A DNA stretch of 64,000 nucleotides, from the NCBI RefSeq assembly GCF_036670015.1, contig NZ_CP137636.1, positions 4,070,501 through 4,134,500 on the forward strand. Direction: 5' to 3'. A program made the translations under genes and the position numbers. Shown here one piece after another: positions 16,364 to 29,305 of the stretch; position 1 is the first letter of the stretch, and each line of letters starts with the position of its first letter. The notes below the pieces were generated by a model. It saw nothing but the letters and a program-made list of their open reading frames with translations, searched no databases and had not been told where the DNA came from. Origin of the DNA: Niallia sp. XMNu-256 (GTDB lineage Bacteria; Bacillota; Bacilli; Bacillales; Cytobacillaceae).

Positions 16364-17377
16364 ATGATTGAAATTAAGAACCTCACAAAAATATATAAAA
16401 CAAAAAGCGGCTCAGTTAAAGGTGTTGATAACGTATCATTAACCATTAAAAAAGGCCAAATATATGGAATCGTCGGCTATTCAGGTGCCGGGAAAAGTTC
16501 CCTTTTACGATGTATTAACCTACTAGAACGACCTTCTTCTGGTGACATTTTAGTAGATGGTGTCAACTTAATGAAACTGGGCAGTGATGGGTTGCGAAAA
16601 GCACGCCTAAAAATCGGCATGATTTTTCAACATTTCTATTTAATTAGTCAAAAAACAGTTGCTGAGAATATCGCTTTTTCCCTAAAAGCGGCAAAAGTTC
16701 CCGCTAATAAGATTGATACCCGGGTTGATGAATTATTAGAAATGGTTGGCCTTTCTGATAAAAAGAATGTATATCCCGCACAACTGAGCGGTGGTCAAAA
16801 ACAACGAGTTGGAATTGCCCGAGCGCTTGCTAATAACCCTAATGTTTTATTATGTGACGAGGCAACATCAGCACTTGACCCAACAACAACAAGGTCAATA
16901 TTAAAATTACTGAAAAAAATTAATGAAGAGTTAAATATCACCATTGTGTTAATCACGCATGAAATGGATGTTGTAAAAGAAATCTGTCATCATATGGCGA
17001 TTATGCAGGATGGAAAGGTTATTGAAGAAGGACCCGTGTATGATATTTTTGCCAATCCAAATGCAGAGCTAACAAGAGAATTTATCAGCTCTGTCGTTTC
17101 TTATGAAATTCCAAACGCGATTTTAGAAAAATGTAAAGGCACCCTTGTAAAGGTCACTTTTAAAGGTGATATTGCGGGTGAAGGAGTTATCTCCGAAACA
17201 CTTAAACAATTTAATGTTCACGGAAACTTCCTACATGGTTCAATTGAATATATTCAGGAATCCCCTTTAGGTGTCTTTATCATGGAAGTCATTGGTTTAG
17301 AGGAAGATATTGAGCAAGCCATCCAATATATTCGCAAGCGGGAAGCCGAAGTGGAGGTGTTACGTCATGGGGTTTGA
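16364..17377 (+). CDS. metN: Methionine ABC transporter ATPase MetN
   Basis: Cytoplasmic ATPase of the D/L-methionine importer. Walker A GYSGAGKSS, signature LSGGQKQR, Walker B VLLCDEATSALDP, switch THEMDV. The C-terminal NIL/ACT-like domain (about 265-337), which senses methionine, is present. The RBS AAGAAGG precedes ATG 16364. It is the first gene after the SAM riboswitch. Confidence 0.96.
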   Translation: MIEIKNLTKIYKTKSGSVKGVDNVSLTIKKGQIYGIVGYSGAGKSSLLRCINLLERPSSGDILVDGVNLMKLGSDGLRKARLKIGMIFQHFYLISQKTVAENIAFSLKAAKVPANKIDTRVDELLEMVGLSDKKNVYPAQLSGGQKQRVGIARALANNPNVLLCDEATSALDPTTTRSILKLLKKINEELNITIVLITHEMDVVKEICHHMAIMQDGKVIEEGPVYDIFANPNAELTREFISSVVSYEIPNAILEKCKGTLVKVTFKGDIAGEGVISETLKQFNVHGNFLHGSIEYIQESPLGVFIMEVIGLEEDIEQAIQYIRKREAEVEVLRHGV

Positions 17378-18038
17378 TTTTCAGCATTTTATTGAACTAT
17401 TGCCTGAGATTAATACCGCCTTTTTTCAAACCCTTTATATGATTGCCATCTCATTGGTAGTTGCACTTGTCATTGGTTTGCCAATCGGAATTCTATTATT
17501 TATTACTGATAAAGGGTTATTTTGGGAAAACCGTCTCGTTCAGACTGTATTAGGCTTTATCGTCAATTTGATTCGTTCAATTCCCTTTATCATCTTGCTA
17601 GTAGCTTTAATTCCTTTAACGAAAGCAATTGTAGGAACCCAAATTGGGCCAACAGCAGCAAGTGTTTCTCTATCTGTCGCGGCAATCCCCTTTTTCGCGA
17701 GGATTGTTGAGACTGCTTTAAGAGAAATTGATAAAGGCGTCATTGAAGCGGCAATCGCTGCAGGCGCCACACCATGGATGATTATTAAAGATGTGCTATT
17801 GTTAGAAGCAAAGTCGGGGATCATTTCAGGAATTACCCTTACATTAATTAGTTTAATCGGATTTTCAGCGATGGCTGGAACCGTCGGTGGTGGCGGTATT
17901 GGAGACTTAGCCATTCGATTTGGATATTACCGCTATGATAATACGATCATGATCACCACCGTCATCATCCTCGTTGTACTCGTTCAAGTGATTCAAATCC
18001 TTGGCGACTTTATTGCAAAGGCTGTTGATAAACGATAA
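17367..18038 (+). CDS. metI: Methionine ABC transporter permease MetI
   Basis: Inner permease with about five membrane segments. The EAA-type coupling loop is EAAIAAGATPWMIIKDVLL, followed by GFSAMAGTVGGGGIGDLAI typical of MetI. ATG 17367 overlaps the end of metN by 11 bp and has GGAGGTG upstream; the frame reaches back to 17310 without support. Length 223 aa is normal. Confidence 0.95.
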   Translation: MGFDFQHFIELLPEINTAFFQTLYMIAISLVVALVIGLPIGILLFITDKGLFWENRLVQTVLGFIVNLIRSIPFIILLVALIPLTKAIVGTQIGPTAASVSLSVAAIPFFARIVETALREIDKGVIEAAIAAGATPWMIIKDVLLLEAKSGIISGITLTLISLIGFSAMAGTVGGGGIGDLAIRFGYYRYDNTIMITTVIILVVLVQVIQILGDFIAKAVDKR

Positions 18039-18110
18039 AGAGCACTCTTATTGATAGTTAAAGCAACTCTATTTTTTAAAATTTATTAATAAAAGAAAGA
18101 AGGTTTACTT

Positions 18111-18941
18111 ATGAAAAAATGGTTAATAGGATTAGTAGTATTATTAGCAGTATCACTATTAGCAGCGTGTGGCGCCGGCGACACCGAAGAAGGTACTGAT
18201 ACAGCAGAATCAAAGGATATTGAATTAGGTGCGACAGCAGGTCCATACAGTGATATGCTTAAAAACGCGATTATCCCTGGCCTTGAAGAAAAAGGTTACA
18301 CAGTAAAATTAACAGAGTTCAGTGACTACATCCAACCGAATAACGCACTTGATACTGGTGACATTGATGCAAACCTTTTCCAACATACAATTTACCTTGA
18401 GGACTTCGCAGAACAAAACAATATGGATTTAACTCCTTTAATTATTGTACCTACAGCACCAATGGGCATTTACTCAGAAGTGTATAAGTCTCTTGATGAA
18501 ATTAAAGATGGCGCTACAGTTGCCGTTCCAAATGATCCAACGAATGCAGCTCGTGCATTTAATACATTACAAGACGCTGGTTTGTTAACAGTAAGTCAAG
18601 ATGCAGATCCTCTAACTGTTTCTGAAAGAGATGTCGTTGAAAACCCTAAAAATCTAAAATTCCAACCAATTGAAGCTGGTCAGCTGCCACGTGCAGTTGA
18701 GAGTGCAGACCTTTCTGCCGTACCAGGTAACTTTGCAATTGCAGCAAAAATGAATCTACTTGACGCATTACAACTTGAAAATATGGATGATCGTTACCGT
18801 AATGTTGTTGCAGTGAAAACTGAAAACAAAGATTCACAATTAGCAAAGGATATTAAAGAAGTCGTTGAATCTGATAAATTTGAAAAAGTAATTGATGATG
18901 AATTCCAAGGTTTTGGAAAGCCAGAATGGATGATTAAATAA
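18111..18941 (+). CDS. metQ: Methionine-binding lipoprotein MetQ
   Basis: NlpA-family substrate-binding lipoprotein, 276 aa. The signal peptide ends with LLAAC (Cys20). Family segments are GATAGPYSDMLK, DIDANLFQHTIYL, PNDPTNAARA and the C-terminal GFGKPEWMIK. It delivers methionine to MetNI. Confidence 0.96.
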   Translation: MKKWLIGLVVLLAVSLLAACGAGDTEEGTDTAESKDIELGATAGPYSDMLKNAIIPGLEEKGYTVKLTEFSDYIQPNNALDTGDIDANLFQHTIYLEDFAEQNNMDLTPLIIVPTAPMGIYSEVYKSLDEIKDGATVAVPNDPTNAARAFNTLQDAGLLTVSQDADPLTVSERDVVENPKNLKFQPIEAGQLPRAVESADLSAVPGNFAIAAKMNLLDALQLENMDDRYRNVVAVKTENKDSQLAKDIKEVVESDKFEKVIDDEFQGFGKPEWMIK

Positions 18942-18956
18942 AGTTCATGTATTTAA

Positions 18957-18987
18957 CCCCCTTATCGATTTTGATAAGGGTTTTTTT
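18957..18987 (+). terminator. Intrinsic terminator after metQ
   Basis: CCCTTATC-GATTTT-GATAAGGG followed by TTTTTTT. Confidence 0.92.
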
Positions 18988-19030
18988 ATCAAAAAATCGG
19001 TATGATTAAATTAAAAAAGGAGATTTCTAT

Positions 19031-20129
19031 ATGGAAACTATTTTTGTACATGGAGCCCCTAGTGAGTATGTACTAGAAACCGGAATTTTAAATAGATTAG
19101 AAGCTAAATTGTTAGAACGGGGATTTAAAAAGGTTCTCATTGTTCACGGAGAAAAATCTTGGGCAGCAGCAAAGCCGTATTGGCCGGCTTTAACAGAGAT
19201 TGAAGCAACCCAATATCAATATCATGGAGAAAACTCGTTATCGGAAATTGGTGCGGTTTCAAAACTTGTAATTAAAGGTTCTTATGATGCGATCATTGGC
19301 GTTGGAGGCGGTAAAATCCTTGATTTAGTAAAATCAGCTGGAAATGTCACACATAAACCGTCTGTCCTCATCCCTACTCTGGCATCGAATTGTTCTCCTT
19401 GGACACCTGTAAGCGTCATTTATGATGACGCAGGTACGTTTACCCGCTTCGATGTCTATCCTGTTGGAGCATCACTCGTATTAATCGAACCAGAAATTTT
19501 GTTAAACGGCCCTCTTGATATGTTCATTGCAGGGATTGCCGATACCCTAGCCAAATGGTATGAAGCCGATGTTCAACTCGCTCCTATTGAAACTAAATCC
19601 GTACCGTTGGAAATCTGTTACTTCACAGCAAAACAATGTAAGGATCTCTTATTACAATACTCCGAAGGTGCTGTGAATGCTGTTAAAGCCGGTATATTGA
19701 ACGATGACTTCATAAAGGTAACTGAAACGATCATCATGCTTGGCGGAATGGTTGGCGGCTTTGGGGACCATTATGGCCGTGTCGCAGGCGCCCATGCCGT
19801 ACACAACGGGTTAACGGTTTTAGAAGAGACTCATCATGCTTTACATGGTGAAAAGGTCGCCTATGGAATCCTTGTCCAATTAGTCTTGGAAAATAAATGG
19901 GATGAAATTGATCAGATTCTCCCATTCTATCAACAATTAAATTTACCTCTATCCATTGAAAATCTTGGCATTACACATGTTACCGATGAAATGATTAAAC
20001 AAGTGGCAGAAAAAAACCGTGATTCCGGAAGAATCCATTCATGTTCTGCCTGCTGAAATGACCGCTGAAGTTGTCAGCAAAGCGATAAAGGATTTAGAAG
20101 CATATAGTCGTTCCACTCTCTTATTGTAA
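19031..20129 (+). pseudogene. Iron-containing alcohol dehydrogenase (GldA/HcxA-like), frameshifted near the 3' end
   Basis: NAD(P)-dependent dehydrogenase of the GldA-like family. The cofactor motif is GVGGGKILD, followed by PTLASNCSPWTPVSV; metal-ligand regions AGIADTLAKW, HAVHNGL and HALHGEKVAYG are present. The main frame stops at 20056 after a tail unlike the family (ending RIHSCSAC). The other frame continues from the same point with ESIHVLPAEMTAEVVSKAI and a normal end at 20129. The switch lies at a run of seven A (20010-20016); removing one A restores one 365-codon gene. This may be a sequencing or assembly error, slippage at the A run, or a real mutation. An RBS (AAAGGAGA) precedes ATG 19031. 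Substrate unknown. Confidence 0.8.
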
Positions 20130-20134
20130 AAATA

Positions 20135-20174
20135 AAAAGCTTATCAATCGACTCTCCCGTTTGATAAGCTTTTA
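20135..20174. terminator. Terminator hairpin, left copy of a pair flanking the accessory cluster
   Basis: AAAAGCTTATCAA pairs with TTTGATAAGCTTTT around loop CGACTCTCCCG. A near-identical hairpin (36 of 40 positions, loop included) is at 26046-26086. It serves the dehydrogenase gene. Confidence 0.85.
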
Positions 20175-20239
20175 CTTCATAAATATCAAATAGTCCCTAT
20201 TGCCCGACCAGGTTAGTGACCATCAATAGAGTCGTTCCA

Positions 20240-20437
20240 TTACTTGATATCTCTTGAAAAAATAATTTCATAGTATGAAGCACTACCATACAAAGATCCA
20301 CTTGGTGAAAAAATCTGTACTAATTCCCATCCATCTTTAGCGTATTTATTAATAATTTCTTTATAATCCTCTGCAGGTTTTGTTGAAACTCCCTTTATTC
20401 CCTTTAAATTAATCTTGATAAATTGATATTCCTTCAA
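20240..20437 (-). CDS. Small DUF4177-like protein
   Basis: A 65-aa protein starting at TTG 20437 (GAGGCG 7 nt upstream). The pattern IINKYAKDGWELVQIF followed by a short C-terminal strand is typical of DUF4177 proteins, small alpha/beta proteins of unknown function. It is the last gene of the peptide cluster, 24 nt after the thioredoxin-like gene. Confidence 0.7.
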   Translation of the reverse strand: MKEYQFIKINLKGIKGVSTKPAEDYKEIINKYAKDGWELVQIFSPSGSLYGSASYYEIIFSRDIK

Positions 20438-20461
20438 TAGAATCGCCTCTTCTAAAATAAA

Positions 20462-20935
20462 TTAAAGAATTTGCTTTACCATTTTAATATCGGAAATTAC
20501 ACTTTTGTCCATTACAGTTCCATTTTTGTTAATAACAAATAGGAATGGTTTAGATTTAAGAAATAGCTCTTCCATTGTAATAAAAGAAAATTCATATAAA
20601 TTTTTATCATAATTATATTTATTTAAATAATCTATAGTTTCCTTTTCATTACTTATAAAGAGAATTTTAATTAAATTACCTTTTTTTTCTGATGTATAAA
20701 GTTCTTTTAACAATTTTTGACAGGCTATGCAATCAATATCTAAGCAGAGCAGTCCACTATATTCTTCTGTAAAGTAAAACTGATTTAAATTAATGGGGAT
20801 CTTTCCCCCAAGTGGAATACTTCCTTGAGAAAGGACCATATTAATAATCTTTGGTACACTTCGAATCAAGGAAAGGGTCATAATTAAATTTACAACTAAG
20901 ACTACACATAGAGTAATAATTAACCAATTGTTCAT
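20462..20935 (-). CDS. Membrane-anchored thioredoxin-like (TlpA/MauD-type) protein with CXXC
   Basis: 157 aa. One N-terminal transmembrane anchor (about 4-25) is followed by an extracytosolic thioredoxin-like domain. The candidate redox motif is CIAC (about 69-72, in LDIDCIACQK). FLFVINKNGTVMDKS matches the strand-turn after the cis-Pro region (SKPF). It pairs with the MauE-like protein upstream; such MauE/thioredoxin pairs act as extracytosolic thiol oxidoreductases. I infer a role in forming or rearranging a disulfide in the cluster peptide. The RBS is AGGAGAG. Confidence 0.72.
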   Translation of the reverse strand: MNNWLIITLCVVLVVNLIMTLSLIRSVPKIINMVLSQGSIPLGGKIPINLNQFYFTEEYSGLLCLDIDCIACQKLLKELYTSEKKGNLIKILFISNEKETIDYLNKYNYDKNLYEFSFITMEELFLKSKPFLFVINKNGTVMDKSVISDIKMVKQIL

Positions 20936-20950
20936 ACTGCTCTCCTACTT

Positions 20951-21466
20951 TTACCTTAATAAAATCGTGTATTTATTAACATAAGAAAGAATAAACTTTG
21001 ATCCAATAAGAATCCCCGCAAAGATAATGCCCATTATTTCCATTTGGGTTTCTATAAAAATACTGATTATAAAAACAATAAGAGTAAAAAGGTTTTTTAA
21101 AATTTTTGATACAGAAACTTTTTCAATGATAATGTCACCAAAACAACCACATTCTTGTTGCTCCTTATTCGTAATTAAGGAGTAGTTAATGACTAGTGTT
21201 GCTAGAATATATAGAGTTATAGCTATATATATACCAACGAATTGGGTAGTAGGAATTAATAAAAGTAACCCACCAATTATTTCAATTATTGAGAAAAGGA
21301 CAGTTATGGATTTATACATGATTTCACTATGATGACTTTTAAGTTGCAAATTTATTAACCTCTTAAAGTTTTGATAGAAGTTTTCATGACTATACAATTT
21401 AAAAAGGCCAGAAATTAACAGCAAAAAGGACTGATAATATAGGAAGATACTGATTAAATTATCCAA
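20951..21466 (-). CDS. MauE/DoxX-type membrane protein with CGCFG motif
   Basis: 171 aa, four or five transmembrane segments. ECGCFGD (about 112-118) is the conserved Cys motif of MauE-type proteins, which reduce or oxidise a partner thioredoxin across the membrane. It overlaps the previous gene by 8 bp and starts with TTG. The thioredoxin-like gene follows directly, so the two probably form one redox unit. Confidence 0.72.
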   Translation of the reverse strand: MDNLISIFLYYQSFLLLISGLFKLYSHENFYQNFKRLINLQLKSHHSEIMYKSITVLFSIIEIIGGLLLLIPTTQFVGIYIAITLYILATLVINYSLITNKEQQECGCFGDIIIEKVSVSKILKNLFTLIVFIISIFIETQMEIMGIIFAGILIGSKFILSYVNKYTILLR

Positions 21467-21914
21467 TTTTTCTTAACTTTCTTTTTCTAATGACATTTAC
21501 TAATACACCGGTGATTGTCCCTGCTACAATCCAGTAGATAATTTGACTAGCAAATCCAGATATGGACAAATTTAAATCTACACTTACAATCGTATTGTTA
21601 GAGCCCGTATTCCAGGTAGAAATGCTTTCAATAAAATTACCCATTGTATTTGATTTCGAAAAGAAATAAAAAGGAATTAAAGTGATTAAACTTGCTAAAA
21701 AGGCACTTAAAGCTCCTGCTAAGATTAAATTGTATTTATTTTGACCAATGGTTGCTATTAAAGCCGTTATGATTGGTGTAAGAAGTACAACCAACATCAT
21801 TATTAAAAGAAAAGCAAGGTTTGACGAGCTTTCTTGATAAATCCATATATTTAGCATTAAAACGATAGAGACTAATATGAAACCAGTTAGTATACTCAAC
21901 ATTATTTTTTTCAT
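21459..21914 (-). CDS. Unknown four-TM membrane protein
   Basis: 151 aa with hydrophobic segments around 5-27, 33-57, 63-86 and 120-142, and a basic C terminus (VIRKRKLRKIG). I do not recognise a family. The RBS AGGAGG is 6 nt before the ATG. In this cluster, between a CPBP protease and a MauE-like protein, it might act in immunity or maturation; this is inference only. Confidence 0.6.
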   Translation of the reverse strand: MKKIMLSILTGFILVSIVLMLNIWIYQESSSNLAFLLIMMLVVLLTPIITALIATIGQNKYNLILAGALSAFLASLITLIPFYFFSKSNTMGNFIESISTWNTGSNNTIVSVDLNLSISGFASQIIYWIVAGTITGVLVNVIRKRKLRKIG

Positions 21915-21925
21915 TTTAAAACCTC

Positions 21926-22564
21926 CTAAAAAGAAACCAACATATTATAGGCCAAGTGAATCATAAAACAAGGCAAAAGGTTTTTTGTTTTATAATATAT
22001 AATTCCAAAAATTAAACCTAAAGGAAAACGAATAAGCAAATTATCTATTAAAGATGTATCTTGGTGAAACCCAATTGCAAATATTAGTGAGCATAAAACG
22101 ATTGCAAGAATGGCATTCATGCTCTCTGTCATCCTTCTCTGTAAGATTCCTCTAAATAACAGTTCCTCTCCAAAACATGATACAGAGAAGTGTATCAAAA
22201 CAGGCATTGCCATAGTAAAGTTACTAAAAATTACAAATGTAAGAATCGCTATACTAATTACATAAGTCCCTACTTCTACTAATCTATTCTCTCCTATTAA
22301 CCTGAATCCAATCGTCCTTAATTGAGTATTTCCAATCTTCACTTCAAATATTGTTGGGACAATCACTAAAGCTATTAGCATTGGAAGTGTACCAATTAAT
22401 AAAAACGGGGCTGGATCGTATGTTAAGCTATCTTTTTTAATGGAAAATATATTATGATCAAAAAAAAACGCAAAAGAAAATAAGAGAGCAATCATGAGAA
22501 TATAAGAGATGTAAACAATACTAACACCAACAGTTGTTTTGATAAATGCATTTTGCACACTCAT
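21926..22564 (-). CDS. CPBP-family intramembrane metalloprotease
   Basis: 212 aa membrane protein with the CPBP (CAAX protease and bacteriocin-processing) motifs: EELLFRG (about 136-142), FAIGFH (about 164-169) and HLAYN (about 200-204). Members mature or confer immunity to peptide bacteriocins in many Gram-positives (for example SkfC). It overlaps the upstream permease gene by 4 bp (ATGA), so the two are translationally coupled. Confidence 0.85.
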   Translation of the reverse strand: MSVQNAFIKTTVGVSIVYISYILMIALLFSFAFFFDHNIFSIKKDSLTYDPAPFLLIGTLPMLIALVIVPTIFEVKIGNTQLRTIGFRLIGENRLVEVGTYVISIAILTFVIFSNFTMAMPVLIHFSVSCFGEELLFRGILQRRMTESMNAILAIVLCSLIFAIGFHQDTSLIDNLLIRFPLGLIFGIIYYKTKNLLPCFMIHLAYNMLVSF

Positions 22565-23307
22565 GATTTAACCTCTTTAAATCTAACCAACGGAATACAG
22601 ATTAGTAGCAAGCCAATGATATAAATAAATAAAATCATTAGATCTTGATATTGAAAATTACGGTTAAAATCCGTAATTGTTAACGGCAACCACTCATCTA
22701 TAACACCGTACGCATTTAACAATGAGGATAATAGGGATAATCCTATTGTGCCGAAGATAACACCTATATTCCCAAATAGCAGGGCCAAATTAAAGGATAA
22801 CAAAATAAATATGAGGGCTAACGAAATGAATGAGGCACAAGCAATCAATATATTTAAAACCTCACTTGTTTTGCCCACTATTGTAATATTTTCCGGGGTA
22901 AATATCATACAGCTAATAATCATAAATAGAGCAAATGTTACGATGATCATAACCATGTTTGCAAATGAAACGATTAACTTAGAAAAAATTACTTTTACTC
23001 GACTTGGACTATTTAAGAAATAAGTAGATAATATTCTCTGGTCCAATTCCGCCCCCAATATGTTCCATACGGATATACAAGCGATAATTGCTGTTATTCC
23101 TAACATATTAAAGATCCCGACCACTCCGATAATTAGTTCACTTATGGGAATTAAATTATTACCTTCTTGTTGGATATTGACCAATCCACCCCCAGTGGCT
23201 AATTGGTATACAATAAAAACACCTATTAATGCAAGTGTGACAAGCGAAACATAAAATTCCTTTCTCCTAAACAGCTTTCTAAATTCAACACTTATTAATC
23301 TAGCCAT
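22561..23307 (-). CDS. ABC-2-type transporter permease (pair 2)
   Basis: 248 aa with six predicted membrane segments. It starts MARLISVEFRKLFRRKEF, a common opening of ABC-2 permeases. The RBS is AAGGAG. It probably pairs with the ATPase gene just upstream (10-nt gap) to export the peptide or protect the cell from it. Confidence 0.8.
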   Translation of the reverse strand: MARLISVEFRKLFRRKEFYVSLVTLALIGVFIVYQLATGGGLVNIQQEGNNLIPISELIIGVVGIFNMLGITAIIACISVWNILGAELDQRILSTYFLNSPSRVKVIFSKLIVSFANMVMIIVTFALFMIISCMIFTPENITIVGKTSEVLNILIACASFISLALIFILLSFNLALLFGNIGVIFGTIGLSLLSSLLNAYGVIDEWLPLTITDFNRNFQYQDLMILFIYIIGLLLICIPLVRFKEVKS

Positions 23308-23316
23308 TCTTTCTCC

Positions 23317-24171
23317 TTATCCAAATAATTGTTCTAATTTATTTTCGATTGATTCAATATGCTTTAAAGATACTCCTAAAGAACTCACGATAGAAACGAT
23401 CTTATCTACTTCAATACCTTCAATTTCTATATATTCATCTATAACTCTGGCATCGTACCCTTTAGCCGTTAAGACCTTTACTACTTTGGCATTATCTGAA
23501 GTTATGATTCTACACCCTTTACCAATAGGTATTTCATCCATATGACAATCTAACTTTAAATGTCCTCTCTCTAGAAACAGAACACGATCTACTAATCCCT
23601 GCAATTCTGAAAGTTGATGACTTGAAATAAATATAAGTACCCCTTTTTGGGATAATTCTTTTAAACTATGCTGAAGATCCTTAATTCCGTTTGGGTCAAG
23701 ACCCACAAAAGGTTCGTCTAAAATTAGAATACTGGGTTCGACAATTAACGCGCCAGCAAGTCCTAATCTTTGACACATACCAAAAGAGTAATCCTTTATT
23801 TTCCGTTTTGATTTATCTAACCCCACTAAATTTAAGGTGCCTTCAATTTTCCTTTCATCCATATTTCTAAGAATACATATTTCCTTTAGATACTCATAAT
23901 TAGTTAAATATTTAGGAATTCTAGGTTCAAATAAGACGCCCAAATGACTATATACTTTTTTCCAATCTCTCCAAGGGTCTACACCCAAAACATGTACTAT
24001 CCCACTACTTTTTTTAGATAGCCCCGTTAATATTTTCATTAATGTACTTTTTCCAGCACCATTCTTACCTAATAATCCGATAACACATGGAGTTTCTACT
24101 TTAAAACTAATATCTTTCAGAATACAAAAATCACCACTATATTTGGATAAATTCTGGACTTCAACGATCAA
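23317..24171 (-). CDS. ABC transporter ATP-binding protein (pair 2)
   Basis: Walker A GKNGAGKSTLMK, signature YSFGMCQRLGLA (a variant of LSGGQ), Walker B ILILDEPFVGLDP, switch SSHQLSE. The C-terminal extension (about 205-284) is usual for CcmA/NatA-type exporters. I chose TTG 24171 (MIVEVQNLSKYSG) because GAGGTG lies 7 nt upstream; the frame runs to another TTG at 24186. About 284 aa. Confidence 0.82.
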   Translation of the reverse strand: MIVEVQNLSKYSGDFCILKDISFKVETPCVIGLLGKNGAGKSTLMKILTGLSKKSSGIVHVLGVDPWRDWKKVYSHLGVLFEPRIPKYLTNYEYLKEICILRNMDERKIEGTLNLVGLDKSKRKIKDYSFGMCQRLGLAGALIVEPSILILDEPFVGLDPNGIKDLQHSLKELSQKGVLIFISSHQLSELQGLVDRVLFLERGHLKLDCHMDEIPIGKGCRIITSDNAKVVKVLTAKGYDARVIDEYIEIEGIEVDKIVSIVSSLGVSLKHIESIENKLEQLFG

Positions 24172-24187
24172 TTTACTACACCTCAAA

Positions 24188-24925
24188 TTAATATCTTACG
24201 AATCCCTTTTCTCTTTTTGTTAAATCAAAATAATATTTAAACAACTTATTTCCTATCAAATAAACTAATATTGAATTTATTATAGAAATAATTAAAAACA
24301 TGTATTCATTGCTCTGAATAAATATATTTAATGATAGGAACGGAATTACTAATGCCCCTATATATTTCAAATTGTATAACCATTGTTCCCACGGTAGTAT
24401 TGTACATAGCATGATGACAATCATCATAATATTTACAGTACTTCCTGTATCCTTATAATAGAGAGTTAACCCTGATACGAATAATCCAATCCCTAAACTA
24501 CCAATAAATAAGGGAAAGAACGCTATTGAAATTTGCAAAAACACCTTGAGTCCATCTACAGATAGGAAGGAAAAAATACCTCCAATTAATAATACAATTG
24601 GGAGAGTCCAAACCCCATCAGCTAGGATCCTTGCAATGAGTAGTTGTTTAAACTCTGTATTTCTAGAAACAATTCTCTCTAATATTCCTAATTGCATATC
24701 TCCTCTAATATTATCTCCTCCAGCCCCAATCAAAGCTAACATGACTGGCCAAAGGATCATCATAAATCCCTGAGACAAATCAAAAATGGCAGTAATAACC
24801 GATAAGAAGATACCAATAAATATTAAATTACTAATAATATTAGTGAAAAAAGCAAATTTATAATTTTTCAATATGTAATAATTTCTTTTGATTTCATTAC
24901 TAATAAGTTCTAAGAATCTTTTCAT
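24188..24925 (-). CDS. ABC-2-type transporter permease (pair 1)
   Basis: About 245 aa, six hydrophobic segments, N terminus MKRFLELISNEIKRNYYILK. It resembles ABC-2 permeases of antibiotic/peptide exporters (GDNIRGDMQLGILERI loop). ATG 24925 lies 1 nt after the stop of the preceding ATPase gene, a tight operon junction; an upstream ATG at 24952 would overlap it. Confidence 0.78.
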   Translation of the reverse strand: MKRFLELISNEIKRNYYILKNYKFAFFTNIISNLIFIGIFLSVITAIFDLSQGFMMILWPVMLALIGAGGDNIRGDMQLGILERIVSRNTEFKQLLIARILADGVWTLPIVLLIGGIFSFLSVDGLKVFLQISIAFFPLFIGSLGIGLFVSGLTLYYKDTGSTVNIMMIVIMLCTILPWEQWLYNLKYIGALVIPFLSLNIFIQSNEYMFLIISIINSILVYLIGNKLFKYYFDLTKREKGFVRY

Positions 24926-24926
24926 T

Positions 24927-25580
24927 TTATCTAATACTCCCAATTGTGGCAACAGACTTATGTATAGGGCTTAATATCCTATTTTCTAATAGAACCTCTC
25001 TATGAATGGTGTTGTGCAAAAAGTTTCTATCATGACTAACTATAATAATTGTAATATTCCATTCCTTATTTAATTTGTGTAAAACCGAGGTTAAATGCTT
25101 TACTGAATCTTCATCAAGCCCATTTGTTGGCTCGTCCATCAAGAGTAAATCAGGGTTATTTAATAACGAAATTCCTAATGAAAGCTTTTGCTGCATCCCT
25201 CTAGAATATGAACCTGATAATTCATTTATAAAATCTTCAAGATTTAAGAGTTTTATTATCCTTTTACTTATTTCTCTCTTATTTTTAATTCCAAATATGG
25301 TTGAAAAGTATATTAAGTTTTCATATCCCGTTAGGTTCCAATAAAAATTTCGAGACCCTTCTAATAGCATTTCTGTTTGAATTTTTTTGGAGTAGATAAT
25401 TTCTCCCGCATCCTGGGTTAGTAAATTGCCCATTATTTTTAATAAAGTCGTTTTACCGGCACCATTACTACCAGACAAACCTAAAATTTCCCCTTCAAAA
25501 ATATCAAGGCATATGTTGTCTAGTATTATTTTGTTCTCATACCTCTTTGAGATATTCTTCATATGTACTAAACATTCCAA
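24927..25580 (-). CDS. ABC transporter ATP-binding protein (pair 1)
   Basis: About 217 aa. Walker A GSNGAGKTTLLK, signature YSRGMQQKLSLG, Walker B LLLMDEPTNGLDED, switch VSHDRNF. The TTG start at 25580 is 10 nt after GAGGAG; TTG 25589 is only 1 nt away and ATG 25562 is further in. It follows the small peptide gene after an attenuating hairpin, and its permease follows it. Confidence 0.8.
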   Translation of the reverse strand: MECLVHMKNISKRYENKIILDNICLDIFEGEILGLSGSNGAGKTTLLKIMGNLLTQDAGEIIYSKKIQTEMLLEGSRNFYWNLTGYENLIYFSTIFGIKNKREISKRIIKLLNLEDFINELSGSYSRGMQQKLSLGISLLNNPDLLLMDEPTNGLDEDSVKHLTSVLHKLNKEWNITIIIVSHDRNFLHNTIHREVLLENRILSPIHKSVATIGSIR

Positions 25581-25606
25581 GTTAAACAAACTCCTCTTAA
25601 TTAATC

Positions 25607-25645
25607 AAAACAGGATCCCTAAAAAGGAAGGGAATCCTGTTTTTT
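25607..25645 (-). terminator. Hairpin between the small peptide gene and the ABC genes, candidate attenuating terminator
   Basis: On the minus strand AACAGGATTCCC pairs with GGGATCCTGTT (one bulge or mismatch), followed by TTTTGATT. The short T run suggests partial termination, giving more peptide mRNA than transporter mRNA, as in many bacteriocin operons. Confidence 0.6.
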
Positions 25646-25651
25646 GCTAGA

Positions 25652-25753
25652 TTAAACAGACCATTTTTTTGTTACTTGATAACAAACTTCAATGTTAATA
25701 AAAAAAGTTATTCCAACACAACCTGGTTTTGAAGCAAATAGATTCTTTAACAT
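25652..25753 (-). CDS. 33-aa two-cysteine peptide, candidate bacteriocin/RiPP precursor
   Basis: ATG 25753 has a very strong RBS (AAAGAGGTGG, 5-6 nt spacing), so I take this start rather than the unsupported longer frame to 25852. The peptide begins MLKNLFASKPGC and ends in CYQVTKKWSV. It has two cysteines, Cys12 and Cys24, flanking a hydrophobic stretch (VGITFFINIEV), and a basic tail. It is the first gene of an operon with two ABC exporter pairs, a CPBP protease and a thiol-oxidoreductase pair, which points to a secreted disulfide-bonded peptide. No radical SAM, lanthipeptide, YcaO or cyclase gene is nearby. I do not recognise a known bacteriocin family. Confidence 0.65.
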   Translation of the reverse strand: MLKNLFASKPGCVGITFFINIEVCYQVTKKWSV

Positions 25754-25853
25754 GATTTCCACCTCTTTCTTCCTATTTTTTCTAATTATTTTGAAATAAT
25801 ATATTATTTCTATATAAAATATTATCAGACAATTTAAGACATGGCAAGACAAG

Positions 25854-25890
25854 TTTACAGAATTTACTTTTTCTTTACAATTTCTTTACA
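25854..25890. repeat. TTTACA direct repeats upstream of the peptide operon, candidate regulator site
   Basis: TTTACA at 25854, 25874 and 25885, and TTTACT at 25863. The last three are exactly 11 bp apart, giving the tandem TTTCTTTACA(A/T). The pattern resembles PhoP boxes (TTHACA repeated about every 11 bp), but the motifs read on the strand opposite to the operon, so the regulator is uncertain. Confidence 0.35.
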
Positions 25891-26045
25891 TATAATCAAT
25901 CTCTTATCCTATTGTCTTTGTTCAAACACACTTTCCAAGTTCCTAGGCAATCAAGATTATTTATACCCTTCATCATATAATTAAGACATTACTTATAGGC
26001 ATGTTTACTTATACTAAGTTATAATCGACAAAATGTTTACACAAC

Positions 26046-26086
26046 AAAAAGCTTATCAACCGATTCTCTCGTCTGATAAGCTTTTT
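26046..26086. terminator. Terminator hairpin, right copy of the flanking pair; ends doxX
   Basis: AAAAGCTTATCA pairs with TGATAAGCTTTT, loop ACCGATTCTCTCGTC. It lies 5 bp after the doxX stop and matches the hairpin at 20135-20174 in 36 of 40 positions. Confidence 0.85.
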
Positions 26087-26090
26087 CAAA

Positions 26091-26513
26091 TTATATATTC
26101 TCACTGACTGTATCTTGGTTTTTAGAAAAAAGTGAATCAACGGATAGTAACTTGCTGCCGTTAATCACGATCACTACTGCCATTGCCAACAAGGCCAAGT
26201 CCAGTTCCCATCCAGCCCCTGCACCATTTCCTAGGAAACCACCGGATAATTTTGCCGTTAAAGTTGCACCAATCATAATAATTCCTAGTAATGCAGAAAC
26301 GATTTTACTACCTAAACCAATAATTAAAGCAAATCCACCAACTAGTTCAATAATTGCTACTACATAAGCTAATGGTCCTGGTAATCCAATACTAGAAAAC
26401 CAAGCTACTGTGTTTTCAATTCCACCTGCAAATTTCACATAACCATGAACAAAAAATGTAATTCCTAATATCACTCGTAAAATAAGTGTGCTAACTTCTA
26501 ATTTATTTTCCAT
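26091..26513 (-). CDS. DoxX-family membrane protein (MhqP/CatD-like)
   Basis: 140 aa, four transmembrane segments. ILRVILGITFFVHGYVKF and the Gly-rich GAGAGWELDLALL loop are DoxX-family features. B. subtilis relatives (MhqP, CatD) are induced by quinones and catechol together with ring-cleavage dioxygenases. Here a DODA-type dioxygenase and an MhqD-like hydrolase lie just upstream, supporting a role in aromatic/quinone detoxification. Confidence 0.85.
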   Translation of the reverse strand: MENKLEVSTLILRVILGITFFVHGYVKFAGGIENTVAWFSSIGLPGPLAYVVAIIELVGGFALIIGLGSKIVSALLGIIMIGATLTAKLSGGFLGNGAGAGWELDLALLAMAVVIVINGSKLLSVDSLFSKNQDTVSENI

Positions 26514-26718
26514 TCTATTTCCTTCTCCCCTGTATTAAATCTTGTTGTATTGTTTTAAATGAAATGCGCCTTGGCGGATTTGCCCCAGATAATCTTATAG
26601 CTCGCTCAACAAGCTTCCCCATATAAATCTGCGACATCCGCGGAGGCTTTTATTTTAGTCAGCTAAAGCTTGTACATACTGAATGGTTACTAAGCTTGGT
26701 GACTCATTCTAAATGAAG

Positions 26719-27504
26719 TTACCCGAACTGCCAAACACTATGGCTTAAGTTGCCATAACGATAACTACGGTGCAATAATTTAGCTTGTTTCGAATCATCT
26801 GCTGCTCCCATAGCGTAAAAGATTGGCACGAAATGCTCTTTCCCATATGCCGGCACAGCATGCTGGGCATTTGGTGCTAATGAATAATAATCAAATAGGG
26901 ATGCTGTATCCCATGTTGCTAAATGCTTTTCCAGCCATTGATCAAAGTCAATCGCCCATTGATCATTTTCCTTGCCGTCCTTTTCCCATGCGACAATTCG
27001 TAAGTTATGAACGGTACCACCGCTGCCAATGATCAATACATCCTTTTCCCTTAAGGAGGATAATGCCTTTCCAATTTGGTACTGTTCCTCTGGAGTTAAA
27101 TGCTGATTAACTGACATGGAGATCACTGGTATGTCTGCATTTGGGTAAAGCATCTTTAACACGACCCATGCCCCATGGTCCAACCCGCGCTTGGTATCAA
27201 CTTCATAAGGAATCCCTTGTTGGGTAAATATGCTCTTAATTTCCTCTGTTATCGACTTTTCACCTTTTGCTGGATATTGAATTTGATATAAGGCCTCAGG
27301 AAATCCTCCAAAATCATAGATTGTTTCATATTCACCTTCAATATCACTTACATTTTGAACTTGAGCCTCGTAGTGAGCTGAAAACAGGACGATTGCTTTC
27401 GGCTTTGGCAGTGTTTTGCCTAACTCACTTAAGAACTGTGTGTATTCGTTATTTTCAATTGCTAATAATGGCGCTCCATGTGCGATAAATAATGATGGTA
27501 ACAT
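26719..27504 (-). CDS. DODA-type class III extradiol dioxygenase
   Basis: 261 aa. It starts MLPSLFIAHGAP, with His9 as a likely metal ligand. Other conserved pieces are LFSAHYE, GLDHGAWVVL and GSGGTVHNL, matching the YgiD/DODA family of Fe- or Zn-dependent ring-opening dioxygenases for catecholic substrates. The gene is 14 nt downstream of the MhqD-like esterase gene. Substrate not identifiable. Confidence 0.88.
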   Translation of the reverse strand: MLPSLFIAHGAPLLAIENNEYTQFLSELGKTLPKPKAIVLFSAHYEAQVQNVSDIEGEYETIYDFGGFPEALYQIQYPAKGEKSITEEIKSIFTQQGIPYEVDTKRGLDHGAWVVLKMLYPNADIPVISMSVNQHLTPEEQYQIGKALSSLREKDVLIIGSGGTVHNLRIVAWEKDGKENDQWAIDFDQWLEKHLATWDTASLFDYYSLAPNAQHAVPAYGKEHFVPIFYAMGAADDSKQAKLLHRSYRYGNLSHSVWQFG

Positions 27505-27518
27505 CTATTTTCCTCCTC

Positions 27519-28172
27519 TTATTGTTGGATTTGTTCTTGAATCCATTTCAATAAATCTTGCCTATTCTGTAATGAAACGGTATGGCCCTCTGGATACGAA
27601 TGAAAGCTTACCTTCGCATTTAATTCTTTTAAATAGTTTTGTGCATCCACACCCCATTGATAAGGCAATACCCCATCCATTTCACCGTGTGAAATAAATA
27701 CGGATAGATGATCAACTGGTTGAATTTTATAATCCTCTGAAAGGATTTTAGGTATATATCCACTTAAAGCCACAATCCCCTTAATTTTGTCACCAAGGGT
27801 TAATGCAAGAGACATCGATAAAATGGAACCTTGGCTAAATCCTAGACAGAATAACTGACTTTTGTCGATTGGATATTGTTCAGTGGCATCATCAATAAAT
27901 TGAGTTAACTGACTTAATGATTGCCTAAATACATCACGATGCGGTTTTCCATACTCCTCTATTGTAAAAAAGGCAAAACCAGAACCTTGAGAAATCGGCC
28001 CGCGAATACTAAAGATGAACATTTGTTCCTCTAACCCTTGGACTAATGGAAACATGTTCTGTTCATTGCTCCCCATTCCATGCATTAAGAATAGAGCAGG
28101 GTATGTTTTTTGAGGATCTATTTTAATAGGTTTACGGAGTTCATAAAACAAAGGTGATTCCATACTCTTCAT
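27519..28172 (-). CDS. mhqD: Alpha/beta hydrolase, MhqD-like carboxylesterase/phospholipase
   Basis: 217 aa. The nucleophile elbow is GFSQGS (Ser near 121), the Asp in HGEMDGVLP and His in PEGHTVS complete the triad. The sequence resembles B. subtilis MhqD (YodD), part of the quinone-resistance regulon. ATG 28172 and ATG 28163 both have purine-rich stretches upstream. It is first of a three-gene run (hydrolase, dioxygenase, DoxX) and divergent from an XRE-cupin regulator. Confidence 0.82.
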   Translation of the reverse strand: MKSMESPLFYELRKPIKIDPQKTYPALFLMHGMGSNEQNMFPLVQGLEEQMFIFSIRGPISQGSGFAFFTIEEYGKPHRDVFRQSLSQLTQFIDDATEQYPIDKSQLFCLGFSQGSILSMSLALTLGDKIKGIVALSGYIPKILSEDYKIQPVDHLSVFISHGEMDGVLPYQWGVDAQNYLKELNAKVSFHSYPEGHTVSLQNRQDLLKWIQEQIQQ

Positions 28173-28220
28173 CTCTTTTCATCTTTTAATTTGTTTTGTA
28201 ATAAGAATAAAAGTTTTTAA

Positions 28221-28261
28221 ATATGAATATTTGTTGTTTATAAGGTAACAAATATTCATAT
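28221..28261. promoter_or_regulatory. Perfect 15-bp inverted repeat between mhqD-like gene and XRE-cupin regulator
   Basis: ATATGAATATTTGTT (28221-28235) and AACAAATATTCATAT (28247-28261) are perfect inverted repeats around an 11-bp spacer. It sits mid-way in the divergent intergenic region, so it is probably the operator of the adjacent regulator. Confidence 0.6.
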
Positions 28262-28330
28262 GGATTGTCAACTCCTTTTTTGGTAATATAAATATTAGTT
28301 TCTTATTAGAAAACTTTTGAGGTGATTACA

Positions 28331-28870
28331 TTGGATATCGGCTCCAAAATTCGGATGATCCGAAAAAGAAAACAAATCACTATTGCTCAGATGTGTGAGA
28401 CTACTGGTTTATCAAAAGGATTTATTAGCAATGTTGAAAATAACCATACCTCCCCGTCTATTAATACGTTACAAGCGATCGCTAATTTTCTTGAAACTCC
28501 ATTGCCTTATTTATTGCTTGAAAAGGAAGAACATATGCGTGTTGTGAAAAAAAGTGAAAGAGCCTATTCAAGCCATCATTCATTAAAAGTAGAACACATC
28601 GCTTCATTTGGAGGATTACGAATGATGATGGTAGAGTTTGCCCCAGGACAATCAATGGGTGAGGCAAATGCGCATGAAGGGAAAGAAAGCCATTTAGTCC
28701 TTAGCGGAAAGGTTCTTGCTGAGCAAGGGGAGGATTCTTTTATATTAGAAGAAGGAGATTCCTTTAGCTGGAATGCGTGCGTTCCACATTTTGTAAAAAA
28801 TATTGGTGATGAAAAGGCGGTCATTTTGATTGCCGTTCATTCAGAAGAGGAATTAGAGGATCTTTTTTAG
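28331..28870 (+). CDS. XRE-family regulator with C-terminal cupin domain
   Basis: About 179 aa. The HTH (about 5-60) has TIAQMCETTGLSKGFISNVE, and a cupin domain (about 95-175) has AHEGKESHLVLSGK and EEGDSFSWNACVPHFVKN. This class binds a small ligand in the cupin barrel and usually controls neighbouring metabolic or stress genes. TTG 28331 is 6 nt after GAGGTG; GTG 28322 overlaps the RBS. Divergent from the quinone-stress genes. Confidence 0.85.
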   Translation: MDIGSKIRMIRKRKQITIAQMCETTGLSKGFISNVENNHTSPSINTLQAIANFLETPLPYLLLEKEEHMRVVKKSERAYSSHHSLKVEHIASFGGLRMMMVEFAPGQSMGEANAHEGKESHLVLSGKVLAEQGEDSFILEEGDSFSWNACVPHFVKNIGDEKAVILIAVHSEEELEDLF

Positions 28871-28894
28871 AAGCATGGATTATATTGATATTGC

Positions 28895-28934
28895 CAAGGT
28901 CTTCGTTGATTGGTGAGACGAAGGCTTTTTTCTT
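28895..28934 (+). terminator. Intrinsic terminator after XRE-cupin gene
   Basis: CTTCGT pairs with ACGAAG, with flanking AAGG/CTT, followed by TTTTTTC. Confidence 0.7.
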
Positions 28935-28996
28935 GGATTTTTTCTGATTATAGTTCATCTTGCTACTCTACTGTGAGATGGTAGTATTCACTTTAT

Positions 28997-29305
28997 TTTT
29001 TGCGCATATCTCAAAGGGATAAGTGCCATTTTCCTTCGACCACACTCTGGTTTGCACCTATTACATAAACGATAGCAGCCATTTCCCACGACCATCCTCT
29101 GTTTTGCGCCTATCACTTGAACGATAGAAGCAAACTCCCGCGACCTCCCTATGTTTTGCGCCTATCACAACATGGACAATAAAAGCAATTTCCTCCACCA
29201 CCCTGTGTTTTGCGCCTGTCACATAGACAATAGAAGCATCTCCCGCGACCACCCTTTTTTTATCCCTCCCACATAGACAATAATGTAATTTCTAGCATCG
29301 TTCCC
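28997..29305. repeat. Degenerate tandem array, about 52-bp unit
   Basis: Units begin at about 28997, 29049, 29101, 29153 and 29207 (steps 52, 52, 52, 54), then a degenerate unit. Each starts TTTTGCGCCTATCAC and holds a CTATC-N8-GATAG stem-loop, then a pyrimidine-rich stretch (CCGCGACCACCCT). The 549-bp region between the regulator and the hydrolase holds nothing else but a terminator and a 5' leader. An open frame on the minus strand here is a product of the repeats. Confidence 0.75.

What the first reader, a model, noticed from the sequence alone, without database searches (positions are those of the whole stretch)
20240..25753. Candidate new disulfide-peptide (bacteriocin-like) system
Seen: a 33-codon peptide gene with a very strong RBS and two cysteines (12 and 24) opens a tight minus-strand operon encoding two ABC exporter pairs, a CPBP protease, an unknown four-TM protein, a MauE-like protein (CGCFG), a membrane-anchored CXXC thioredoxin-like protein and a DUF4177-like protein. 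Known: CPBP proteases and ABC pairs mature, export or give immunity to bacteriocins (as in Skf), and MauE/thioredoxin pairs handle extracytosolic disulfides. Inference: the peptide is secreted with a Cys12-Cys24 disulfide made by the redox pair. No radical SAM, lanthipeptide, YcaO or cyclase gene is present, so no standard RiPP class fits.
Basis: partly seen in the sequence, partly recalled or inferred. Interest (0 to 1): 0.85.

Follow-up and report, generated by a model that had tools for sequence, protein, structure and literature searches.

The report
Disulfide hairpin peptide export operon
A low-GC operon, apparently acquired from elsewhere, encodes a tiny two-cysteine peptide with its export, immunity-like and thiol-redox genes; related operons keep the export genes but carry a different cysteine-modifying enzyme, or none when the peptide has no cysteine, which points to a bacteriocin-like peptide closed by a disulfide.

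Summary
Window 20240-25753 (-) encodes a 33-aa two-Cys peptide, two ABC ATPase/permease pairs, CPBP protease, 4-TM protein, MauE, CxxC thioredoxin-like protein and DUF4177. Of 17 related clusters, 4 have MauE/Trx (two-Cys peptides), 4 a radical SAM enzyme instead (one- or two-Cys peptides), 9 neither (Cys-free peptides); none has both. Unrelated MauE-Trx-ABC clusters carry other small peptides with 2 or 6 cysteines. AlphaFold draws a hairpin with Cys12 opposite Cys24 (modest confidence). Best reading: a bacteriocin-like peptide with a hairpin-closing disulfide made by MauE/Trx, exported and self-protected by ABC, CPBP and 4-TM proteins. Activity, disulfide, secretion and redox direction are inferred. 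Novel variant, not a wholly new kind.

The parts
25652..25753 (-). 33-aa peptide gene (with stop), Cys12 and Cys24
   Evidence: ORF with strong RBS; homologous small ORFs in related operons; predicted strands 11-17 and 19-25
25819..25847 (-). sigma-A-like promoter TTGCCA-17-TAATAT with TG before the -10
   Evidence: consensus match only
25855..25892 (-). (T/A)GTAA(A/T) direct repeats, three at 11-bp spacing and a fourth nearby; possible regulator site
   Evidence: only such triple in the window, 0 of 5000 base shuffles of the local region, but the pattern was chosen after seeing it
25607..25643 (-). inverted repeat just after the peptide gene; likely partial terminator or RNA-processing hairpin
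   Evidence: z -2.3; a stable hairpin in the same place, z -2.3 or lower, in 4 of 4 MauE-type and 11 of 17 clusters examined
24927..25580 (-). ABC transporter ATPase 1 (likely TTG start; nearest NCBIfam model PmtC, far below cut-off)
   Evidence: 42% identical to a Gracilibacillus ATPase
24188..24925 (-). ABC permease 1 (no Pfam family)
   Evidence: 28% identical to the Gracilibacillus permease; profile
23317..24171 (-). ABC transporter ATPase 2 (likely TTG start; lantibiotic-protection-like, below cut-off)
   Evidence: profile shared across the three cluster types
22561..23307 (-). ABC permease 2
   Evidence: PF12730 below cut-off; profile shared across the three cluster types, not in L007, L042, L074, L075
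21926..22564 (-). CPBP (Rce1-like) intramembrane protease
   Evidence: PF02517 68.9 bits; E133, E134, R138, H167, H203 invariant in alignments A9 and A12
21459..21914 (-). four-TM protein, distant relative of MsaC-type membrane proteins
   Evidence: no hit to the MsaC model itself; a profile of four MsaC-like proteins reaches it at 2e-5 in a small ORF set
20951..21466 (-). MauE-family membrane protein with CGCFG (TTG start)
   Evidence: PF07291 64.2 bits; aligned relatives
20462..20935 (-). membrane-anchored thioredoxin-like protein, CIAC motif
   Evidence: PF13905 21.0 bits, below cut-off; family profile matches a possible thiol-disulfide isomerase, 3hcz, at 2.9e-4; CxxC invariant in 5 of 5
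20240..20437 (-). DUF4177 protein; role unknown; no relative in 16 related loci
   Evidence: PF13783 62.8 bits; phmmer of small ORFs, E up to 0.1

Best explanation
The operon makes a short secreted peptide of bacteriocin type. Translation gives a 33-aa precursor with a short basic N-terminal part and a two-stranded core whose Cys12 and Cys24 face each other; the MauE-Trx pair joins them in a disulfide. The ABC pairs export the peptide and/or protect the producer; the CPBP protease and the 4-TM (MsaC-like) protein act in processing or immunity. The hairpin after the peptide gene keeps peptide mRNA in excess over operon mRNA. Shown: gene content, homologous peptides with the Cys pair in related operons, no overlap of MauE/Trx and radical SAM among the clusters examined, Cys-free peptides where both are absent. 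Inferred: disulfide, oxidising direction, secretion, killing activity, role of the hairpin and of each membrane protein.
For: Peptide ORFs with a GCV...CY Cys pair in CPBP/4-TM/MauE/Trx operons of the S. epidermidis plasmid NZ_CP009047, Gracilibacillus lacisalsi and another genome of its genus; the last two peptides differ by 2 synonymous codons only. MauE+Trx in 4 of 17 clusters, rSAM in 4, neither in 9, both in 0. Cys numbers: two in 4 of 4 MauE clusters, one or two in 4 of 4 rSAM clusters, none in 9 of 9 others. With near-identical pairs collapsed, 6 of 6 against 0 of 9, p 2e-4 if independent, which related clusters are not. Other clusters with MauE, Trx and an ABC exporter carry unrelated small strong-RBS peptides with 2 Cys (L005) or 6 Cys (L032, L034, L035 twice). 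Predicted strands put residues 12 and 24 opposite. Context: lowest-GC 5.6-kb stretch of the window, 29.8% at 20401-26000 against a mean of 37.3%; site without insert in two relatives; quorum-sensing-type regulators near some relatives (ComR-type by Pfam; LytTR by deposited annotation).
Against: No activity, expression or mass data. The peptide of each cluster was picked by me among RBS-bearing small ORFs, so the Cys table is not blind. The Gracilibacillus peptide is best of 129 small ORFs in its locus, but 41 of 300 shuffles do as well (2 of 300 in the pairwise test). Charge counts put the MauE CxC loop in the cytosol (15 of 15, the narrowest 7:6, 8:5, 8:5; N-terminal tails left out) and Trx leans the same way in two members and is neutral in the others, so extracytosolic oxidation is doubtful. 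The S. epidermidis cluster lacks ABC pair 1 and Gracilibacillus lacks permease 2; DUF4177 is in no relative. The hairpin model rests on two sequences: best model mean pLDDT 66.5, the other four 50.5-55.5. One MauE-Trx-ABC cluster, L031, showed no convincing Cys peptide. L034 has transposase-like ORFs between peptide and ABC gene. Thioredoxin_8 is below its cut-off.
Confidence: 0.6

Rival explanations
1. Same biosynthesis, but the peptide is a cell-cell signal or other non-killing secreted factor, and the ABC/CPBP/4-TM genes only process and export it.
For: CPBP proteases also mature signalling peptides (recalled: MroQ in staphylococci); some related clusters sit beside LytTR/histidine kinase or ComR-type regulators; no activity data.
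Against: Two ABC pairs and the similarity of ATPase 2 to lantibiotic-protection ATPases (178 bits, below the 310 cut-off) fit immunity better; up to six tandem copies of a Cys-free relative suit a bulk product; no sensor was seen in the ORF list beside the window operon.
Confidence: 0.17
2. MauE/Trx do not make the peptide disulfide: they keep the thiols reduced for export, shuffle wrong disulfides, or serve the transporter; the disulfide forms by itself or not at all.
For: Charge counts put the MauE CxC loop, and more weakly the Trx CxxC, on the cytosolic side; the best solved-structure match of the Trx profile is named possible thiol-disulfide isomerase.
Against: In the clusters examined the pair goes with Cys-paired peptides, is replaced by a radical SAM enzyme in sister clusters and is missing where peptides have no Cys; even Cys numbers in unrelated MauE-Trx-ABC clusters.
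Confidence: 0.15
3. The small ORF is only a regulatory leader whose hairpin attenuates an antimicrobial-resistance ABC operon; no peptide product.
For: A hairpin follows the ORF and the operon contains immunity-like ABC transporters.
Against: Amino-acid sequence is conserved between genera; the ORF lies at other places in related operons: after Trx in Gracilibacillus, before CPBP in S. epidermidis; tandem copies in relatives.
Confidence: 0.05

Closest known systems
Radical-SAM sister clusters (L043, L048/L037, L049; sacti/ranthipeptide-like)
   Same: CPBP, a small membrane protein beside it, ABC ATPase 2/permease 2 and a short K-x-(G/N)-C-V peptide
   Different: radical SAM/SPASM enzyme instead of MauE/Trx; Cys-x8-Cys or one Cys; 4-TM proteins not significantly alike
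Msa-type clusters (4-TM proteins hitting NCBIfam NF038270, 'Msa family membrane protein')
   Same: CPBP, 4-TM, ABC ATPase/permease, short peptide ORFs, often a hairpin after them
   Different: Cys-free, often tandem peptides; no redox or radical SAM gene found; most of those in G719's genus add a second permease and an ABC exporter of about 570 aa
MauE-containing candidate RiPP families of decRiPPter (PMC7794033; passages seen)
   Same: MauE, once with MauD, proposed to act on precursors; MauE's disulfide role is called speculated there
   Different: Streptomyces clusters; their precursors were not compared here
Sporulation killing factor (Skf; recalled)
   Same: CPBP protease, ABC pair and thioredoxin-like protein around a short Cys peptide (recalled)
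   Different: Skf has a radical SAM enzyme (recalled); none here, and MauE is added
Phenol-soluble modulin exporter Pmt (recalled; NCBIfam PmtA/PmtC models)
   Same: two ABC pairs for short leader-poor peptides (recalled); ATPase 1 is nearest to PmtC
   Different: 135.9 bits against a cut-off of 375; CPBP, MauE and Trx are extra
Leaderless bacteriocins such as aureocin A53 (recalled; class described in the abstract of PMC11580447, listing)
   Same: very short precursor without a recognised leader
   Different: no curated bacteriocin model hit; Cys pair and redox genes

Membership tests
Msa-type (MsaC) cluster | 4-TM protein scoring above the NF038270 cut-off | tested here: not met
   window 4-TM protein: model not among its hits up to E 10; a profile of four MsaC-like relatives reaches it at 2e-5, so a distant relative at most
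Msa-type (MsaC) cluster | same CPBP and ABC ATPase 2/permease 2 genes | tested here: met
   shared profiles, window CPBP 2e-63, ATPase 4e-112, permease 8e-76; the window is itself one row of each profile, the hits of clusters that are not rows (L069, L070, L072, L073, L076) are the test
Sactipeptide/ranthipeptide (radical SAM RiPP) | radical SAM/SPASM maturase beside the precursor | tested here: not met
   no hit at E 1e-3 in ORFs of 90 codons or more of window 17000-29000 with a three-row rSAM profile; none among the Pfam/NCBIfam hits listed
Lanthipeptide, lasso, thiopeptide, YcaO RiPP | class-defining enzyme in the operon | tested here: not met
   none among the Pfam/NCBIfam hits listed for the ten operon proteins (for the ABC proteins NCBIfam shows only the best 25)
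Known bacteriocin or RiPP precursor family | precursor matches a curated model | tested here: not met
   0 families for the window peptide; 0 NCBIfam families for the 11 relatives' and plasmid peptides scanned
MauE/MauD-type redox pair | MauE domain and membrane-anchored CxxC thioredoxin-like protein | tested here: met
   PF07291 64.2 bits; CxxC invariant; Trx domain weak
Leaderless bacteriocin | secreted without N-terminal cleavage and antimicrobial | not testable with these tools
   needs mass spectrometry and activity assay

The most novel reading that the evidence does not exclude
MauE plus a membrane-anchored Trx is an interchangeable maturation module for small exported Cys peptides in Bacillota: a membrane oxidase, facing the cytosol, that closes disulfides before export and can stand in for a thioether-forming radical SAM enzyme on one CPBP/MsaC-like/ABC scaffold. 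Ancestral peptides of the family may have been Cys-free hairpins, with the covalent lock added by either module. The window peptide would be a member of the disulfide branch.
Probability: 0.3. Interest if true: 0.82.

Novelty: new variant of a known kind. Interest (0 to 1): 0.68.

Why it matters
It gives a small-peptide family in which a shared export and immunity scaffold occurs with three states of the peptide: Cys-free without a modifying gene, with a radical SAM enzyme, or with MauE/Trx. That makes the function of MauE-Trx pairs outside methylamine metabolism testable, and lets one compare a presumed disulfide with a presumed thioether in related peptides. The peptides are 28-36 aa, had no annotated feature in the two plasmid records seen (PLSDB gene tables, which are incomplete) and the 11 relatives' and plasmid peptides scanned match no NCBIfam model, so genome mining is likely to miss them.

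Tried and rejected
Single-sequence MauE searches found no relative: only the window's own copy in 193 family genomes and 397 order genomes, none in plasmids or genome contigs. This was lack of sensitivity: the plasmid collection holds the S. epidermidis member, and G454 was in the order sample (same group and size), where CPBP found it. Permease 1 on genome contigs gave one locus, G. lacisalsi again. The Trx profile hit 15 of 398 class genomes including the window's own. Of the 14 other regions fetched none showed this scaffold in the ORF list: three looked like lone Trx genes, seven like MauE/Trx neighbourhoods of other kinds without an ABC exporter, and four (L031, L032, L034, L035) had an ABC exporter. 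In L031 the stretches scanned gave no convincing Cys peptide, only a 77-codon four-Cys ORF overlapping a longer ORF.

CPBP hits L051, L077, L078 and L079 were dropped: no 4-TM or permease-2 profile hit; L078 and L079 have an ABC ATPase gene within the 12 kb. Their small ORFs were not scanned for a peptide, apart from L051 for GC(V/I/A) ORFs. The A12 search of G688's family hit 3 of 73 genomes: G688 itself and the two that became L078/L079. L074 and L075 are looser relatives (MacB-like transporter, no 4-TM, ATPase-2-type pair or permease-2 hit of the scaffold kind) but were kept in the 'neither' group; without them it has 7.

A degenerate peptide pattern in viral contigs gave one match inside an unrelated 153-codon ORF, taken as chance. 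Profile comparison of the 4-TM proteins between MauE- and rSAM-type clusters was not significant (4.5% probability), nor was alignment A10 against the protein of L071; homology of the 4-TM proteins rests on gene order and the 2e-5 hit. The window peptide does not by itself match the Cys-free peptides (best small ORF of L050 and of L071 equalled by 255 and 42 of 300 shuffles, and neither was the peptide); the link goes through rSAM-type peptides (0 and 1 of 300; one or two such pairs expected by chance among the 105 tested). The AlphaFold model of MauE (pLDDT 48.5) is too poor to use. PADLOC: 0 families for 8 proteins. Paper searches gave nothing in the listings on this operon type; six peptide strings gave 0 papers. 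Most subscription papers are not held; many hits for 'MauE' or 'msaC' are other words. No source explaining the name Msa was found.


Full report
What is there. The minus-strand operon 20240-25753 is as described. The 33-aa peptide gene has a strong RBS, a sigma-A-like promoter with TG before the -10 and, 8 nt after its stop codon, an inverted repeat (25607-25643) before the first ABC gene. Pfam confirms two ABC ATPases, CPBP, MauE and DUF4177; the Trx domain and permease 2 score below cut-off. The family profile of the Trx-like protein matches a possible thiol-disulfide isomerase in the PDB at 2.9e-4; MauE matched no solved chain. The peptide matches no Pfam or NCBIfam model. The lowest-GC 5.6-kb stretch of the window lies on the operon (29.8% at 20401-26000; mean 37.3%). 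In two same-genus genomes the flanking genes, gld and doxX, are 59 and 70 bp apart with, read by eye, only a terminator-like repeat between them; in a third (L082) no doxX ORF of 130 codons or more was listed beside gld. The operon is therefore an insertion in this species, or a loss in the others.

Relatives with MauE/Trx. Single-protein searches for MauE failed. CPBP found one other genome of 397 in the order, and Trx found five staphylococcal plasmids. One of these, the S. epidermidis plasmid NZ_CP009047, has ABC ATPase and permease, then a 36-aa ORF without annotation, MFKSLFSSSKPGCVSIKPFGVGVSYCYKSKNKRHRT, then CPBP, 4-TM, MauE, Trx. Gracilibacillus lacisalsi (named) has MauE, Trx, a 28-aa ORF MKKRLGCVSLVVFGKRIEKCYGPSWLRV behind AAAGGAGGTGA, ABC pair, CPBP, 4-TM; a second genome of its genus has the same peptide with two synonymous changes. 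The shared pattern is G-C-V, F at Cys+6, and C-Y after 11 or 12 residues. The S. epidermidis match stands alone (score 65; 0 of 300 shuffles, best 51). The Gracilibacillus match to the window peptide is best of its 129 small ORFs but 41 of 300 shuffles do as well in that locus-wide test; in pairwise tests it has 2 of 300 to the window and 0 of 300 to the S. epidermidis peptide, and its place in the operon carries the rest. A hairpin follows the peptide gene in all four (z -2.3 to -4.3).

Relatives without MauE/Trx. Wider CPBP profiles and the S. salivarius plasmid gave sister clusters. Nine have neither module: L050 and eight from G719's genus, taken to be Streptococcus because L048 is nearly identical to the S. 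salivarius plasmid. Their peptides have no Cys and are often tandem, such as six copies of MAKKVKAKASKRNTVNLGIVSYTYTRGRHSI-like peptides. Of 73 genomes searched in that genus 10 had a CPBP hit, one of them (L077) without the scaffold. Profiles of each component give 4 MauE/Trx, 4 radical SAM, 9 neither, 0 both among these 17 clusters. ATPase 2 and permease 2 are shared across the three types, although L007/L042 lack permease 2 and L074/L075 lack permease 2 and a strong ATPase-2 hit. Collapsing near-identical pairs, Cys peptides occur in 6 of 6 clusters with a modifying module and 0 of 9 without (p 2e-4 if independent, which they are not). I chose the peptides from RBS-bearing small ORFs, so this is not a blind count. 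Cys-free and Cys peptides are linked through radical-SAM-type ones (0 and 1 of 300 shuffles), not directly to the window peptide.

A second line. Other clusters with MauE, Trx and an ABC exporter, unrelated in their peptides, carry strong-RBS small ORFs with even numbers of cysteines: 2 in L005 (and in L004, which has Trx and exporter but no MauE in the stretch seen), 6 in L032, 6 in L034 (where transposase-like ORFs lie before the ABC gene), 6 in two identical tandem copies in L035. In a scan of 40 loci all four six-Cys strong-RBS ORFs of 25-60 aa lay in these clusters. L031 has MauE, Trx and an ABC exporter but no convincing ORF of this sort in the stretches scanned. The 40 loci were all fetched as relatives or neighbours, so this is not a random background.

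Mechanism. AlphaFold2 with two sequences gives strands at 11-17 and 19-25 (block pLDDT 82 and 74; mean 66.5 in the best model, 50.5-55.5 in the other four), which puts residue 12 opposite residue 24. In the S. epidermidis and Gracilibacillus peptides an F-G pair stands midway between the cysteines, as a turn would. I take the disulfide as likely and the MauE/Trx pair as its maker, by the swap with radical SAM. Oxidation on the cytosolic face before export would match the cytosolic radical SAM enzyme it replaces; archaeal VKOR proteins with inverted orientation are a recalled precedent. The charge rule was not calibrated here on proteins of known topology.

The scaffold. The window 4-TM protein has no model hit, but proteins at its place in Cys-free clusters are NCBIfam NF038270 'Msa family membrane protein' (L071 4.5e-37, L072 7e-38, L050 2.7e-18), and a profile of four such proteins reaches the window protein at 2e-5 in a small ORF set. 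Direct comparisons failed, so this is a distant relation backed by gene order. DUF4177 has no relative in 16 related loci.

Literature. PMC7794033 (passages seen) reports MauE in candidate RiPP clusters of Streptomyces and calls its disulfide role speculated. PMC6703854 (abstract, passages and discussion read) ties ComR-type regulators to bacteriocins in S. salivarius; a ComR-type regulator stands before one Cys-free cluster (L071). PMC13361665 and PMC6120550 (passages seen) cover streptococcal radical-SAM peptides and pneumococcal bacteriocin clusters; the passages seen do not describe this scaffold. Ten searches showed no description of it in their listings.

Verdict. A new variant of small exported, bacteriocin-like peptide systems.

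Noticed in passing
20136-20172 and 26048-26084: Two nearly identical hairpins (AAAGCTTATCA...TGATAAGCTTT) flank the operon; the insert-free site of two relatives has, read by eye, one terminator-like repeat there. They may mark the insertion.
   Followed up: partly
19031-20129: The gld-like dehydrogenase gene beside the operon aligns with three relatives only over residues 1-329 of 341, and their open frames are longer; what looks like the rest of the C-terminus lies in another frame (ORF 20019-20129): apparently frameshifted near its 3' end.
   Followed up: partly
L032 4916-5071; L034 4224-4358; L035 3961-4131 and 4173-4343: Small strong-RBS ORFs with six cysteines in clusters with MauE, Trx and an ABC exporter; no NCBIfam family.
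   Followed up: partly
L004 4336-4485 and L005 11250-11405: Staphylococcal plasmid peptides of 49-51 aa with a conserved Cys pair after Trx and a 574-576-aa ABC exporter; MauE present in L005, not seen in L004.
   Followed up: partly
L071 4402-5062: Six tandem copies of a 31-aa Cys-free basic peptide downstream of a ComR-type regulator.
   Followed up: partly
L037 8869-11842: A radical SAM gene of a sister cluster on a S. salivarius plasmid is interrupted by an ISSag10-type element with lnu(C). Described only.
   Followed up: no
MauE-like proteins in 15 loci: All 15 have the CxC loop on the Lys/Arg-rich, presumably cytosolic side, although the family is usually discussed with extracytosolic disulfides (recalled).
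   Followed up: partly
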